DNA from: a bacterium | GTDB taxonomy: Bacteria > Sysuimicrobiota > Sysuimicrobiia > Sysuimicrobiales > Segetimicrobiaceae | Assembly: GCA_035307765.1 (NCBI GenBank) | Contig: DATGHU010000006.1 | Span: forward strand, 124,001 to 188,000 | Reading direction: 5' to 3' | Length of the DNA: 64,000 nucleotides | In this document: positions 17,272-22,037 of the stretch, piece by piece | Layout: every line of letters begins with the position of its first letter | Position numbering within the stretch: the stretch's first letter is position 1 | Notes under the pieces: generated by a model | Databases searched by the model: none | What the model saw: the letters and a program-made list of their open reading frames with translations, nothing else | What the model was told of the DNA's origin: nothing | Translations under genes and position numbers: made by a program

Positions 17272-18165
17272 ATGACGGAAGAGACCATTCCCCAACTCGA
17301 CTCGCTGTTCGAGGATCTGGGACGGCAGCTGTACCTGGATGCGCAGATCGACATCCCGCCCGATATCCGGCAGGGCCTGCGGGACGCCCAGGCGCGCGAA
17401 TCGAACCCGGTGGCGCGCGGGATCCTCGCCACCATGCTCAAGGCGATCGACATCTCGGACCGCAAGCAGACGTTGGTGTGTCAGGACACCGGCATTCCGA
17501 TCTTCTGGATCACCATCGGGCGCGGGTTCCTCATCGACGGCGCCCGCATGATCGACGCGCTGCGCCGCGGCGTGGAGCGGGCGACGACCGAGACGCCCCT
17601 GCGCTCCAGCATCGTCTCGCCGGTCCGGCGCGAGAACCGCCAAACCAGCAGCGGGGAGCTGGTGCCGGTCGTACACGTGGAGTTCTCCGGCGAAACCGAC
17701 CACATCGAAATCATGATGATGCCGAAGGGGTCCGGCTCGGAGAGCATGTCCTTCTTGAAGATGCTGCTGCCGGCCGACGGGATCGCCGGGGTGAAGAAGT
17801 TTGTCCTCGAGACCTGCGTCGGCGCCGGGGGCCGACCCTGCCCGCCGACGATCGTCGGGGTGGGGATCGGCGGATCCTCCGACCTGTGCGTCACACTGGC
17901 GAAGAAGGCGACGCTGCGGCCGGTTGGCCAGCGGCATCCGGACCCGCAAGTCGCGGCGCTGGAGCTCGAACTGCTCGAGGCCATCAACAGCACGGGGATC
18001 GGCCCGATGGGGCTGGGAGGGGACACCACGGCGCTCGACCTGCACATCGAGACCGCGTGGACGCACATCACCCTCAACCCGGTGGCGGTGAACATGCAGT
18101 GCTGGCGGGGCGAACGCCGCCGGGCCCGGCTGTTCCGCGACGGCCGCGTGGAGATTGGGTACTGA
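17272..18165 (+). CDS. Class I fumarate hydratase (or tartrate dehydratase), alpha subunit
   Basis: Fe-S hydro-lyase alpha subunit of 297 residues, which adds water to fumarate to give malate, or acts on a related dicarboxylate such as tartrate or mesaconate. Three cysteines that can bind the oxygen-sensitive [4Fe-4S] cluster lie in LVCQDTGIPIFW (Cys70), ETCVGAGGRPCPP and the C-terminal NMQCWRGE. The glycine-rich VGVGIGGSSD motif and GPMGLGGDTTALDLHIE are typical. The beta subunit is encoded next with only 1 base between the genes, the split arrangement of thermophile, archaeal and TtdAB-type enzymes. Adjacent SDH genes favour fumarase over tartrate dehydratase. Confidence 0.88.
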   Translation: MTEETIPQLDSLFEDLGRQLYLDAQIDIPPDIRQGLRDAQARESNPVARGILATMLKAIDISDRKQTLVCQDTGIPIFWITIGRGFLIDGARMIDALRRGVERATTETPLRSSIVSPVRRENRQTSSGELVPVVHVEFSGETDHIEIMMMPKGSGSESMSFLKMLLPADGIAGVKKFVLETCVGAGGRPCPPTIVGVGIGGSSDLCVTLAKKATLRPVGQRHPDPQVAALELELLEAINSTGIGPMGLGGDTTALDLHIETAWTHITLNPVAVNMQCWRGERRRARLFRDGRVEIGY

Positions 18166-18166
18166 G

Positions 18167-18772
18167 ATGGAGCACCGGCTTCAGACTCCGACCAGCGAAG
18201 ACGCGGTGCGGGCTCTCCGGGTCGGCGACACCGTGGTGCTCGACGGCATCGTCTGGGGGATCCGCGACGCGACCCTGATCCGCATCTTCGATCAGGGCCA
18301 GCCCCCGCCCGCGGACCTGCGGGGCGGCGTCCTATTGCACGTGGCGCCCAACGTTCGGCCGTCCGCGGCCGCCCCGAGCGGTTACGAGCCCACGACGGTC
18401 GGAACCACGACCAGCATGCGCATGGACCGCTTCACCGAAGGCGTGCTGCGGGACTACGGCGTCCGGGCGATCATCGGCAAGGGCGGCCTCTCCGACCTGA
18501 GCAGCGCCGCGCTGACGCGGTACGGCGGAGCGTATCTCGCCATCGTCGGCGGCGCGGCGTCGGTGGAGACCGAGCAGGTCGAGGCGATCGAGCACGTCTA
18601 TTGGGAAGACCTGATGCCCGAGTGCCTCTGGCAGTTCCGCGTCCGAGCCTTCGGGCCGCTGATCGTGGCGATGGATGCGACAGGCGCCAGCATGTATCGC
18701 GACGTGGCGCAGCGGGCGCAGCAGCGGCTCGCCGATGTGTTCGCGAAGCTGGGGCTCTCCGATGGCCCGTGA
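18167..18772 (+). CDS. Class I fumarate hydratase (or tartrate dehydratase), beta subunit
   Basis: Fe-S hydro-lyase beta subunit of 201 residues. It has LRVGDTVVLDGIVWGIRDAT, GYEPTTVGTTTSMRMDRF and IIGKGGLSDLSSAAL, the C-terminal swivelling domain that completes the active site of class I fumarases. VYWEDLMPECLWQFRV is the typical C-terminal landmark. The ATG at 18167 follows the alpha-subunit stop directly; an in-frame TTG at 18155 would overlap the neighbour. Its 3' end overlaps the flavoprotein start by 11 bases. The complex would act in the cytoplasm, hydrating the fumarate made by the downstream succinate dehydrogenase. Confidence 0.88.
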   Translation: MEHRLQTPTSEDAVRALRVGDTVVLDGIVWGIRDATLIRIFDQGQPPPADLRGGVLLHVAPNVRPSAAAPSGYEPTTVGTTTSMRMDRFTEGVLRDYGVRAIIGKGGLSDLSSAALTRYGGAYLAIVGGAASVETEQVEAIEHVYWEDLMPECLWQFRVRAFGPLIVAMDATGASMYRDVAQRAQQRLADVFAKLGLSDGP

Positions 18773-20489
18773 CCGGAGCGAGTTCGCCTGCGACGTCTTG
18801 ATCCTCGGCAGCGGCGGCGCGGGCCTAATGGCCGCGCTGCACGCGTACGACACCGACCCGCGCCTTGACATCGTCGTGGCCGCCAAGGGCCTGATCGGCA
18901 AGAGCGGGTGCACGCGGCTGGTGCAGGGAGGGTTCAACGCCGCGCTGGATCCTCGCGACTCCCCGGAACTGCACTTTCGCGACACGCTGGCGGGCGGGCA
19001 GTTTTTGAACAATCAGGACCTGGCCTGGACCCTCGTCTCCGAGGCGCCCGACGTCATCCGCAAGCTGGAGACGAAAGTCGGGTGCTTCTTCGACCGTGGG
19101 GAGGACGGCCGGATCCATCAGAAGGCGTTTGCCGGCCAATCGTTCGACCGCACCGTGCACCGGGGCGACCTCACCGGCATCGAGATCGTCAGCCGCCTCC
19201 ACGATCAGCTGCTCGCCCGGAACATCCGGATCCTCGACGAGACGCGCGCGCTCGAGCTGATCCACGACCGTTCGGGGGCGCGCATCGCGGGCGCGCTCCT
19301 GCTGCGGCAGCGGGACGGCGACTTCGTTCTCGGGCGGGCCCGGGTCGTCGTCCTGGCGACCGGCGGCGGCCCGCGGATGTACACGTACTCCGCTCCCTCG
19401 CTGGAGAAGACGGGGGACGGCTACGCGATGGCGTACCGCGCCGGGTGCGACCTGATCGACATGGAGATGATGCAGTTCCACCCCACCGGGCTCCTCGCCG
19501 GGGCCTCGCGGCTGTCCGGCATGGTGCTGGAAGAGGGCCTCCGCGGCGCCGGCGCCTACATGGTCAACGCCCAGGGCGAGCGCTTCATGGCGCGGTATGA
19601 CCCCGTCCGAATGGAGCGCGCCACCCGGGATCTCGTGGCCCGGGCGAGCTATCTTGAGATCATGGCCGGGCGCGGCACGGCGGCGGGCGGGGTGTGGCTC
19701 GACGCCTCGCATCTTGGCGCTGAGTACGTCGCCCGAACCTTTCCCGGGATGGTTCAGCGCTGCGCGGAGGTCGGGTACGATCTCACCACCGGACCGGTGG
19801 AGGTGACCCCCACGGCCCACTTTCATATGGGCGGCGTCTCGATCGACGTGGACTGCCGCACCGCGGTGGCGGGGCTGCTCGTCGCGGGCGAGGACGCCGG
19901 GGGCGTGCACGGGGCGAACCGCTTGGGCGGGAACGGCGTGGCGGAATCGTGCGTCTTTGGGTCGCGGGCCGGCCGGACGGCGGCCCAGGTGTGCGCGGAG
20001 TCGACGCTCGTGGAACCGGACGAATCCGAGGTGGCGCGGGGGGAGATGGTCGCGCGCGCGCCCCTCGAACACGGGCACGGCGAGAATGCGTTCAAAATCC
20101 GGGACTGCCTCCTTGAGGTGATGTGGGAACACGCCGGACTCGTCCGGGACGAGCGGGGACTGACGGCCGCGCTGGCGGCGATCGGCGAACTCGAGGAGCG
20201 CGCCGCCCGAGCGTCGGTGCCGAATGCGCGGCGCTGGAACCTCGCCTGGCAGCAGGCGCTCGACGTGCGGAACCTGCTCACCGCCGCTCGCCTCACCGCC
20301 ACCGCAGCCCTCTACCGCCGGGAGAGCCGAGGGTCTCACGCCCGCAGCGACTTCCCCGAACGCGACGACGCGGAGTGGTTGGTCAACATCCACCAGGCCG
20401 TCGGGCGCCCGCCATGGACGGAGCCGGTGCGCCTGACCCGGCTGCGGCCTCGCGACCTCGACGCGCGCCAGGGCACTGTGCGGCTGTGA
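18762..20489 (+). CDS. sdhA: Succinate dehydrogenase/fumarate reductase flavoprotein subunit
   Basis: Catalytic FAD subunit of 575 residues that oxidises succinate or reduces fumarate. The N-terminus has DVLILGSGGAGLMAALHA and GLIGKSGCTRLVQGGFNAAL. Active-site features are MMQFHPTGL, the RATRDLVAR arginine region and TPTAHFHMGGV. The covalent-FAD motif of classical SdhA (S-H-T) reads S48-G-C-T51 here, with no histidine, so FAD is probably bound non-covalently, as in archaeal thiol:fumarate reductases and L-aspartate oxidase. The C-terminal helical domain (LEERAARASVPNARRWNLAW) is normal. The ATG at 18762 overlaps the fumarase beta gene; its stop overlaps the Fe-S subunit start (GTGA). Confidence 0.9.
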   Translation: MARDRSEFACDVLILGSGGAGLMAALHAYDTDPRLDIVVAAKGLIGKSGCTRLVQGGFNAALDPRDSPELHFRDTLAGGQFLNNQDLAWTLVSEAPDVIRKLETKVGCFFDRGEDGRIHQKAFAGQSFDRTVHRGDLTGIEIVSRLHDQLLARNIRILDETRALELIHDRSGARIAGALLLRQRDGDFVLGRARVVVLATGGGPRMYTYSAPSLEKTGDGYAMAYRAGCDLIDMEMMQFHPTGLLAGASRLSGMVLEEGLRGAGAYMVNAQGERFMARYDPVRMERATRDLVARASYLEIMAGRGTAAGGVWLDASHLGAEYVARTFPGMVQRCAEVGYDLTTGPVEVTPTAHFHMGGVSIDVDCRTAVAGLLVAGEDAGGVHGANRLGGNGVAESCVFGSRAGRTAAQVCAESTLVEPDESEVARGEMVARAPLEHGHGENAFKIRDCLLEVMWEHAGLVRDERGLTAALAAIGELEERAARASVPNARRWNLAWQQALDVRNLLTAARLTATAALYRRESRGSHARSDFPERDDAEWLVNIHQAVGRPPWTEPVRLTRLRPRDLDARQGTVRL

Positions 20490-21190
20490 TCTTCCACGTC
20501 AAGCGCTTCGATCCCGAGGCTGACGCGCGGCCGTCCTGGCAGGCGCACACCGTGGACGTGCGGCCGAAGATGAGCGTCCTGGACGGACTGTTTTGGATCC
20601 TGGAGCGCATGGACGGGACCCTTGGGTTCCGGTACTCGTGCCGGGCGGGGATGTGCGGGTCGTGCGCGATGGTGGTGAACGGCCGCGAGGCCCTCGCCTG
20701 CCGCCTCCGGCTGGAGCGCATCTCCGGTCCGGTCTACGTCGAGCCGCTGCGTTCGCTGCCGGTGATCAAGGATCTCGTGGTGGACATGGCTCCGTTCTTC
20801 ACCAAGTATCGGTCCGTCGATCCATTCTACATCGGCGAGGACCCCTCGATGACGGGGCGCATCGCGGAGCCGGTCGTGGTCCGGCCGGATTCCGGCGTGC
20901 GCGACGTCGTGGACCAGCAGGTTGGGTGCATCTCATGCGGCGCGTGCTATTCGGCCTGCCCGGTGGTCGCGCTCAACCCAGGCTACCTCGGCCCGGCCGC
21001 GCTGAACCGGGCGTACGTGCTCAAGGCCGATGTCCGCGAGCCCTCCAGCGATGACCGGCTGGCCCTCGTCTCGGGGGACGACGGCGTGTTCGCCTGTCAC
21101 GACGTCGGGAGCTGCATCACCGCGTGCCCGGTCGGGGTCAACCCGCTCCTCTCCATCCACCTGCTTCGAAAGGGCGCCCCCCATCGCTAG
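20486..21190 (+). CDS. sdhB: Succinate dehydrogenase/fumarate reductase iron-sulfur subunit
   Basis: Electron-transfer subunit of 234 residues. The N-terminal [2Fe-2S] ferredoxin domain has Cys52, Cys57, Cys60 and Cys72 in RYSCRAGMCGSCAMVV and EALAC. The C-terminal domain holds ferredoxin-like cysteines in CISCGACYSACPVV and CHDVGSCITACPVG, enough for a [4Fe-4S] and a [3Fe-4S] or second [4Fe-4S] cluster; the second set reads CxxxGxCxxxCP. The GTG at 20486 overlaps the SdhA stop by 4 bases. Electrons pass from FAD through these clusters to quinone at the membrane anchor encoded next. Confidence 0.92.
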   Translation: MIFHVKRFDPEADARPSWQAHTVDVRPKMSVLDGLFWILERMDGTLGFRYSCRAGMCGSCAMVVNGREALACRLRLERISGPVYVEPLRSLPVIKDLVVDMAPFFTKYRSVDPFYIGEDPSMTGRIAEPVVVRPDSGVRDVVDQQVGCISCGACYSACPVVALNPGYLGPAALNRAYVLKADVREPSSDDRLALVSGDDGVFACHDVGSCITACPVGVNPLLSIHLLRKGAPHR

Positions 21191-22037
21191 CCGCCGCGGG
21201 CGCAGCTTTCAGGCGTTCACGTGGTTCTACCTGCGGGCCAGCGGCCTCCTGATGATCGCTTTCGTCCTGGGGCATCTCTTTATCATGCACTATCAGCACG
21301 TCCCGTCCGCGACGGGTGCGGCGTTCGTCGGCCGGCGCTGGACCGTGGCCGGCTGGCGGGAATTCGACTGGATCCTGCTGATGCTGGCGCTCACGCACGG
21401 CATGGCGGGGGCGCACGGGGTGTTCCGGGAGCGCATCCGGCGCCCCCCCGCCCGAGCGGCGGTGGACGGGGCCTTCGCCGCGGGGATCCTCCTGTTTTCG
21501 GGGTTGGGCACGGCCGCCGTCGCCGTGGGGCCGCGCGCCCCACAGAGCGGCCCCGGACCGCTCTCGGGAGCCGTCTGGATCCCCACGGCCCTGATCGCCG
21601 GTCTCGTCGCGTTGGCCACGCTGACCTACCTCGCGCTGGCCGGCACGGCGGCGGCGCTTGCGGCACGTCTTCTCCGACGCACCCCGATCGGCCGATGGAA
21701 CTACCCCGGGCAGTGGGCGTTTGGGTTGAGTCGGGTCGCCGGGCTCGGCGTTTTGGGATTCCTCCTCGTCCACGTTCTGGACGTTGCCCTCGTCCCGCTC
21801 GCGCCCGGCCTCTATGAGCGCACCGTCGCCGGTTACGCCCTGCCGTATCTGATCCCCATGGAGGTCGCTCTGGTGACGGCGGTCATCTACCACGCGCTGA
21901 ACGGGCTGCGGCTGATGGTGCTCGAGGCGCTCGACCGCCGCACGGTTGCCGCGCACGTCCCCTCGTTCGTCCTGGTGGTGGTCGTGACCGCGCTGCTCGT
22001 CGTGCCGAGCGCCGTGATCCTCCTCCGCGGGCATTGA
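21183..22037 (+). CDS. Fused succinate dehydrogenase membrane anchor (SdhD-like plus SdhC-like halves); start uncertain
   Basis: Integral membrane protein of about 284 residues with about eight hydrophobic segments. The first half resembles SdhD: SGLLMIAFVLGHLFIMH, then THGMAGAHGVFRERI. The second half resembles SdhC: SRVAGLGVLGFLLVHVLD, then VIYHALNGLRLMVLEAL. Histidines able to hold heme b or face quinone are near 31, 36, 72, 78, 197 and 237. No ATG, GTG or TTG lies in frame close to the expected N-terminus. An ATC at 21183 follows AAAGGG by a suitable distance; the nearest upstream ATG is 130 bases inside sdhB. Normal bacteria encode SdhC and SdhD separately, so the fusion is notable. Start is inferred. 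Confidence 0.72.
   Translation: MASRRGRSFQAFTWFYLRASGLLMIAFVLGHLFIMHYQHVPSATGAAFVGRRWTVAGWREFDWILLMLALTHGMAGAHGVFRERIRRPPARAAVDGAFAAGILLFSGLGTAAVAVGPRAPQSGPGPLSGAVWIPTALIAGLVALATLTYLALAGTAAALAARLLRRTPIGRWNYPGQWAFGLSRVAGLGVLGFLLVHVLDVALVPLAPGLYERTVAGYALPYLIPMEVALVTAVIYHALNGLRLMVLEALDRRTVAAHVPSFVLVVVVTALLVVPSAVILLRGH

What the first reader, a model, noticed from the sequence alone, without database searches (positions are those of the whole stretch)
21183..22037. Fused SdhD-SdhC membrane anchor with a non-standard start
One chain carries an SdhD-like half followed by an SdhC-like half, with histidines in both. No conventional start codon fits the N-terminus; ATC at 21183 behind AAAGGG is the best candidate. 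A fused anchor would fix the order and stoichiometry of the two subunits.
Basis: partly seen in the sequence, partly recalled or inferred. Interest (0 to 1): 0.6.

Follow-up and report, generated by a model that had tools for sequence, protein, structure and literature searches.

The report
Fused SdhD-SdhC anchor, conserved AUC start
In one family of uncultured bacteria the two membrane-anchor subunits of a succinate dehydrogenase are joined into one protein, in reversed order with an extra membrane helix between them, and in all eight genomes that carry it the gene most probably starts at the rare codon AUC, overlapping the stop of the gene before it.

Summary
The frame at 21183-22037 is one uninterrupted gene, the last of a fumarase-sdhA-sdhB-anchor operon. 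Its first half is homologous to SdhD and its second half to SdhC. A linking segment with a fourth membrane helix has no counterpart in separate SdhC or SdhD proteins of sister families. The predicted structure is a seven-helix protein (pLDDT 82.5). The four histidines that hold the two haems of Mycobacterium smegmatis Sdh2 are all present and invariant. The fusion occurs in eight of nine well-assembled genomes of the family. The related families searched, and one genome of the window's own genus, have separate genes.

The start codon is the more unusual part. ATC is conserved in 8 of 8 genomes, always in an 8-base overlap with the sdhB stop (ATCGNTAG). It is the only AUN/NUG codon available at one place in all eight. 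The same lineage starts infC (IF3) with ATC, so AUC initiation is credible. Supporting signals are modest: the Shine-Dalgarno-like GAAAGGG is not exceptional, and there is no expression data.

Verdict: a real new variant of a class A-type di-haem anchor, with a probable conserved AUC start read by coupled re-initiation. A regulatory role for the AUC codon is inferred.

The parts
17272..18165 (+). fumA-alpha: class I (Fe-S) fumarate hydratase alpha subunit, first gene of the operon considered
   Evidence: PF05681 E 4.7e-91; conserved upstream of sdhA in most of the eight genomes
18167..18772 (+). fumA-beta: fumarate hydratase beta subunit
   Evidence: PF05683 E 5.2e-30
18762..20489 (+). sdhA: flavoprotein subunit, ATG start overlapping the fumA-beta stop by 11 nt
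   Evidence: TIGR01812 468 bits, NF004900 573 bits, both below curated cut-offs; SdhA tree
20486..21190 (+). sdhB: iron-sulphur subunit, GTG start (GTGA overlap with sdhA), stop TAG 21188-21190
   Evidence: TIGR00384 210 bits, over cut-off 88
21168..21174 (+). GAAAGGG, Shine-Dalgarno-like, 8 nt before the ATC
   Evidence: same place in all eight genomes with small changes; pairing energy not exceptional
21183..21185 (+). ATC: probable start codon, in an 8-nt overlap ATCGCTAG with the sdhB stop
   Evidence: 8/8 genomes; only AUN/NUG codon shared by all
21183..22037 (+). fused SdhD-SdhC membrane anchor, 284 codons, seven predicted TM helices
21219..21536 (+). SdhD half (about residues 13-118), TM1-TM3, haem histidines H31 (21273-21275) and H72 (21396-21398)
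   Evidence: matches 6lum_D E 3e-13; aligns with separate SdhD of sister families
21537..21698 (+). linker (about residues 119-172) with the extra helix TM4 (132-164), absent from separate SdhD and SdhC
   Evidence: gap in all 18 unfused rows of A2; helix 132-164 in the model
21699..22034 (+). SdhC half (about residues 173-284), TM5-TM7, haem histidines H197 (21771-21773) and H237 (21891-21893)
   Evidence: matches 6lum_C E 2e-20; PF01127 E 5.5e-10

Best explanation
The gene encodes a single-chain, seven-helix, di-haem membrane anchor for a class A-like succinate:quinone oxidoreductase, made by joining SdhD (N half) to SdhC (C half) through an added fourth transmembrane helix. That helix brings the chain back to the cytoplasmic side, so that SdhC can enter the membrane in its normal orientation. 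The chain binds SdhA-SdhB and two b haems (H31/H197 distal, H72/H237 proximal) and passes electrons between succinate/fumarate and a membrane quinone. Translation most probably starts at AUC 21183, by ribosomes that have just ended sdhB at the overlapping UAG and re-initiate a few bases back. AUC is a start that IF3 discriminates against, so fresh initiation should be weak and anchor output should depend on SdhB translation. Shown: fusion, order, extra helix (predicted), conserved histidines, conserved ATC. Inferred: haem binding, orientation, re-initiation, IF3 sensitivity, direction of catalysis.
For: Two halves: PDB profile hits 6lum_C/6lum_D; fold search ranks 1-6 are SdhD and SdhC chains of 6lum, prob 1.00, TM-score up to 0.78 by target length. 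Separate sdhC and sdhD genes of sister families map one to each half. Model pLDDT 82.5, pTM 0.76, seven long helices; seven hydrophobic peaks with mean R+K 2.6/4.1/4.8/2.5 in even loops against 2.5/1.0/1.0/1.1 in odd loops. Haem ligands D65, D107, C47, C87 of 6LUM (PMC7447783) fall on H31, H72, H197, H237, invariant in eight. Start: ATC 8/8 at ATCGNTAG; in-frame stops 15-63 nt upstream in six genomes with no canonical start between; ATC-to-TM1 distances 39, 60, 63, 78 nt, all multiples of three; the overlapping sdhB codon is NAT in 8/8 although T-ending His/Asp codons are about 29% (73 of 250) in these genes; infC starts with ATC in this lineage; AUC is listed as an IF3-discriminated start (PMC4611024).
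Against: The Shine-Dalgarno-like motif is no better than 6-50% of other windows in sdhB. Synonymous conservation of the last seven sdhB codons is not exceptional (rank 48 of 226). The eight genomes are related, so 8/8 is not eight independent trials. In G004 a GTG (+12) and an ATG (+24), and in G006 a GTG (+15), lie downstream of the ATC and could serve there. No ribosome profiling, proteomics or enzyme data exist here. The proximal quinone site may be altered: the Asp-Tyr pair of unfused SdhD is replaced by Glu/Asp plus Arg/His/Val.
Confidence: 0.78

Rival explanations
1. The fusion is real, but translation starts at another codon (a nearby GTG/ATG/CTG or a downstream codon in TM1) and the ATC is only a by-product of the conserved SdhB tail.
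For: G004 and G006 have GTG/ATG codons between the ATC and TM1. An ATG in TM1 is present in most genomes. The SdhB tail RKGA-(H/D)R is conserved.
Against: No other AUN/NUG codon is shared. G001 and G003 have no other AUN/NUG codon at all before TM1. The TM1 ATG is ATA in G004 and would cut TM1. Indels between ATC and TM1 all keep the frame. His/Asp at the overlap could be CAC/GAC, which is commoner in these genes, yet is always CAT/GAT.
Confidence: 0.15
2. A programmed +1 frameshift at the end of sdhB makes an SdhB-SdhD-SdhC chain, so no separate start codon is needed.
For: The anchor is in the +1 frame relative to sdhB and the frames overlap with no canonical start codon.
Against: No conserved slippery sequence: the codon before the stop varies (CGC, CGG, CGA, CGT) and the tRNA for CGN could not re-pair one base on with GCU/GGU/GAU/GUU. 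The SD-like motif lies too far upstream to match the bacterial prfB-type signal (spacing recalled from general knowledge). In sister families and in G011 SdhB ends separately.
Confidence: 0.05
3. The frame is two genes joined by a sequencing or assembly error.
For: All genomes compared are draft genomes; the loci that could be named are metagenome-assembled.
Against: The same joined frame with a conserved linker occurs in eight genomes at 57-72% identity, without stops, with the third codon position diverging most.
Confidence: 0.01
4. The protein is an ordinary class B anchor (single chain, five helices, two haems) and not a D-C fusion.
For: A single chain with four histidines in the bD, bP, bD, bP order is how class B would be described.
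Against: Seven helices rather than five; no class B chain among the PDB sequence hits even at E 10, while class A SdhC and SdhD both hit strongly; one half each matches separate SdhD and SdhC.
Confidence: 0.03

Closest known systems
Mycobacterium smegmatis Sdh2 (PDB 6LUM), class A di-haem succinate:menaquinone oxidoreductase
   Same: Both halves are sequence and fold relatives of its SdhD and SdhC; all four haem-ligand histidines are present.
   Different: Here SdhD and SdhC are one chain, D first, with an added TM4. Glu-D86 of the M. smegmatis proton path is replaced by R/A/G. No SdhF gene was looked for.
Class B anchors (Wolinella succinogenes FrdC; Bacillus SdhC from general knowledge)
   Same: One chain carrying two b haems.
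   Different: Class B has five helices (PMC10238741); this has seven, and its sequence is class A-like. If confirmed it would be a separate route to a one-chain di-haem anchor.
Separate sdhC-sdhD of sister families (G012-G042) and of G011
   Same: Same phylum; each gene matches one half. G011 even has the same fumAB-sdhAB context.
   Different: Two genes, C before D, canonical GTG/ATG starts for sdhD; no TM4.
infC with a non-canonical start (AUU in E. coli, AUA in S. aureus, AUC in this lineage)
   Same: An AUN start other than AUG, conserved over a lineage; the same codon AUC as this lineage's own infC.
   Different: infC encodes the discriminating factor itself. The anchor encodes a metabolic enzyme subunit and overlaps an upstream stop codon, which suggests re-initiation.
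S. aureus ccpN, cvfC1 and citZ non-canonical starts (PMC13009471)
   Same: Non-canonical AUU/AUA starts outside infC that lower initiation, two of them (cvfC1, ccpN) conserved; citZ is another TCA-cycle gene.
   Different: AUA/AUU rather than AUC; the infC, cvfC1 and ccpN sites there have strong extended Shine-Dalgarno motifs, which are not seen here.

Membership tests
Sdh_cyt (PF01127) SdhC/SdhD anchor family | Profile match above the gathering score | tested here: met
   42.3 bits against 25.8, two stretches; the N half alone is below the cut-off (16.9 bits)
TIGR02970 succinate dehydrogenase cytochrome b556 subunit | Score above curated cut-off | tested here: not met
   34 bits against 52.3
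Class A complex II | Two b haems held by four histidines, two from SdhC and two from SdhD | tested here: met
   Sequence positions only: H31, H72, H197, H237 invariant; haem content itself not testable here
Class A complex II | Two separate three-helix membrane subunits | tested here: not met
   One continuous frame with seven helices in eight genomes
Class B complex II | Single membrane subunit with five helices and two b haems | tested here: not met
   Single chain, but seven predicted helices and no sequence hit to class B chains
Class F complex II | Single six-helix subunit related to M. smegmatis Sdh1 (7D6V) | tested here: not met
   No hit to 7d6v; the genome's other SDH does match 7d6v_C, E 3e-48
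Genes with a non-canonical AUN start (infC type) | Conserved AUN codon other than AUG as the only usable start | tested here: met
   ATC 8/8; in G001 and G003 no other AUN/NUG codon between the upstream in-frame stop and TM1
Genes with a non-canonical AUN start (infC type) | Expression lowered and IF3-dependent compared with AUG | not testable with these tools
   Needs a reporter assay
Translationally coupled gene pairs | Start overlapping or next to the upstream stop | tested here: met
   8-nt overlap ATCGNTAG in 8/8
Translationally coupled gene pairs | Downstream translation depends on upstream termination | not testable with these tools
   Needs a reporter assay

The most novel reading that the evidence does not exclude
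A single-chain class A-derived di-haem anchor that arose by an order-reversing D-C fusion, whose translation is gated on purpose. The AUC start can hardly be used by free ribosomes because IF3 rejects it, so the anchor is made mainly by ribosomes that have just finished SdhB. This would tie the membrane anchor to its iron-sulphur partner one to one and make it respond to IF3 level.
Probability: 0.35. Interest if true: 0.7.

Novelty: new variant of a known kind. Interest (0 to 1): 0.52.

Why it matters
Complex II is sorted into classes by the number of anchor subunits, helices and haems. A seven-helix, one-chain, di-haem anchor built from SdhD plus SdhC fits none of the described classes as defined and shows that a single-chain anchor can arise by fusion in a class A background. 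A lineage-wide AUC start outside infC, overlapping a stop codon, would be a clean natural test of whether re-initiating ribosomes evade IF3 proofreading. It also warns that gene callers limited to ATG/GTG/TTG will truncate this gene or place its start inside sdhB.

Tried and rejected
A Shine-Dalgarno energy test gave no exceptional signal, and synonymous constraint at the sdhB 3' end was not exceptional; both are reported as such. The first AF2 model with eight sequences was poor (pLDDT 51); adding 18 separate SdhC/SdhD rows raised it to 82.5. Upstream in-frame ATGs in G000 (-153, -132) were rejected as starts because they are not conserved and several relatives have in-frame stops after them. 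A start at the TM1 methionine was rejected because G004 has ATA there. A fused anchor on plasmids: no match. The genome-contig scan found only three family members. Literature searches for fused SdhC-SdhD anchors returned nothing relevant in the open-access library, so absence of a published precedent is not established. Class and phylum searches covered the same 43 genomes as the order search.

Full report
What is there. The window lies in a 3.82 Mb draft genome (G000, contig C6:124001-188000). Five genes follow one another on the + strand: fumarase alpha (17272-18165), fumarase beta (18167-18772), sdhA (18762-20489), sdhB (20486-21190) and the anchor (21183-22037). The last three junctions overlap by 11 nt (beta/sdhA), 4 nt (sdhA/sdhB, GTGA) and 8 nt (sdhB/anchor, ATCGCTAG). 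The anchor is in the +1 frame relative to sdhB.

The fusion. Pfam Sdh_cyt hits the protein twice. A profile of eight family members matches SdhC of M. smegmatis Sdh2 over profile positions 170-259 (E 2e-20) and SdhD over 12-120 (E 3e-13), and no class B anchor even at E 10. In other families of the phylum the matches are pairs of small neighbouring genes, the upstream one matching the C half and the downstream one the N half, in sdhC-sdhD-sdhA-sdhB order. Aligned together, nine separate SdhD proteins cover only the N half and nine separate SdhC proteins only the C half (apart from a few unplaced N-terminal residues), leaving residues about 119-172 without a counterpart. The window gene is therefore SdhD then SdhC, the reverse of the gene order in the sisters, plus an inserted segment.

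Shape. Hydropathy averaged over eight sequences gives seven membrane-like stretches, and even-numbered loops are on the whole richer in Arg/Lys than odd ones. AlphaFold2 with the 26-row alignment gives pLDDT 82.5 and pTM 0.76 with long helices at 8-37, 56-84, 88-115, 132-164, 175-206, 221-257 and 262-281. Foldseek ranks six chains of 6LUM (SdhD and SdhC) first, each with probability 1.00; their E-values are weak (0.008-0.04), probably because each chain covers under half of the query. Helix 132-164 is the linker. A three-helix SdhD with its N-terminus inside ends outside, and a fourth helix returns the chain to the inside for SdhC; this topological reading is inference.

Haem ligands. In 6LUM the proximal haem is held by His D107 and His C87 and the distal one by His D65 and His C47 (PMC7447783). 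In the alignments these fall on H72, H237, H31 and H197 of the window protein, all invariant in the eight relatives. The Asp-Tyr pair after the second histidine of separate SdhD proteins (such as DDY) is not kept (RE/RD followed by R/H/V), and the residue at Glu-D86 of M. smegmatis is R, A or G. The quinone site may therefore differ; this was not tested further.

Distribution and origin. Eight of the nine family genomes that are at least 90% complete and at most 5% contaminated carry the full-length fusion at 57-72% identity. The ninth, G011 of the window's own genus, carries fumAB-sdhAB followed by separate sdhC and sdhD with GTG starts. In an SdhA tree the eight fused systems form one clade (100/99) with G011 as sister (100/100), though G011 sits on a long branch. 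This fits a single fusion event. Outside the family no full-length match was found among the 43 genomes held for the phylum, in plasmids, or in genome contigs beyond three family members. Distant fusions in other phyla could have been missed. The named relatives are 'Bacillota bacterium' MAGs from the Centralia series. The one-class, one-order shape of the phylum resembles Sysuimicrobiota/CSP1-3 (PMC11604079), but that placement is a guess.

The start codon. In all eight genomes the sequence at the junction is ATCGNTAG, the ATC being in the anchor frame and TAG being the sdhB stop. Six genomes have an in-frame stop 15-63 nt upstream of the ATC with no ATG/GTG/TTG after it. In G001 and G003 no other AUN or NUG codon exists before TM1. 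The distance from ATC to the conserved Trp at the start of TM1 takes four values (39, 60, 63, 78 nt), all multiples of three, as expected if this stretch is translated from the ATC. The sdhB codon that supplies the AT of ATC is CAT or GAT in 8/8, although CAT/GAT make up 73 of 250 His/Asp codons in these genes (the genomes are related, so the naive product of about 1e-5 is not a probability). The TM1 methionine cannot be the start since G004 has ATA there.

Is AUC initiation credible here? infC, whose non-AUG start is a textbook case, starts with ATC in the window's own genome and relatives. In G001, G002, G003, G006, G007 and G011 an in-frame stop stands only two codons before that ATC, so no canonical start is possible. 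In a 454 kb sample of G000, 312 coding frames were found and only three lacked a canonical start within reach of their coding signal, so ATC starts are not a general habit. That scan cannot see genes whose frame runs on into an upstream gene, the anchor among them. AUC is among the start codons that IF3 discriminates against (PMC4611024). Non-canonical starts outside infC are known in S. aureus and there lowered reporter expression to roughly 10-30% of AUG (PMC13009471).

What did not support it. The GAAAGGG upstream is well placed (8 nt) but its pairing with the assumed 16S tail is matched by 6-50% of windows inside sdhB. Synonymous conservation of the last sdhB codons is ordinary. The case for AUC rests on its position, invariance, frame keeping and lack of alternatives.

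Mechanism proposed. Ribosomes end sdhB at UAG, step back five bases and re-initiate at AUC. Re-initiation at starts overlapping stops is established in E. coli (PMC2268962). A weak start limits fresh initiation and ties anchor output to SdhB translation. The regulatory reading is inference; a neutral, historically fixed AUC is not excluded.

Verdict. The fusion is secure (about 0.97). The AUC start is probable (about 0.8). Its regulatory meaning is open (about 0.35).

Noticed in passing
L059 (G000:C23:16941-17444) and L057-L066, L105, L107, L112, L114-L117, L120-L122: infC (IF3) starts with ATC across the family and, where the motif search could read it, at the same place in nearly all genomes of the other families of the phylum.
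   Followed up: partly
L127:18307-19224 (-), G000:C4: ksgA (16S rRNA dimethyltransferase, identified by eye) has no ATG/GTG/TTG before its conserved N-terminus; a CTG start is the likeliest.
   Followed up: no
L087:4064-7346 (-), G000:C7: A second succinate dehydrogenase with a class F-type anchor (matches M. smegmatis Sdh1 7d6v_C, E 3e-48) beside genes that look like icd, mdh and fumC; the lineage thus has an Sdh1-like and an Sdh2-like enzyme, as mycobacteria do.
   Followed up: partly
L054:6314-7012 (-), G011: Same genus as the window genome but with separate sdhC and sdhD after fumAB-sdhAB; its anchors resemble the fused halves less than those of other families do (D 29.9 bits against 53-66; C not detected), so the anchor may have been exchanged independently of SdhAB.
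   Followed up: partly
window 21426-21434 and 21333-21335: Quinone-site and proton-path residues usual in class A SdhD (Asp-Tyr after the second haem His; Glu before Arg-Trp) are replaced in the fused proteins.
   Followed up: no
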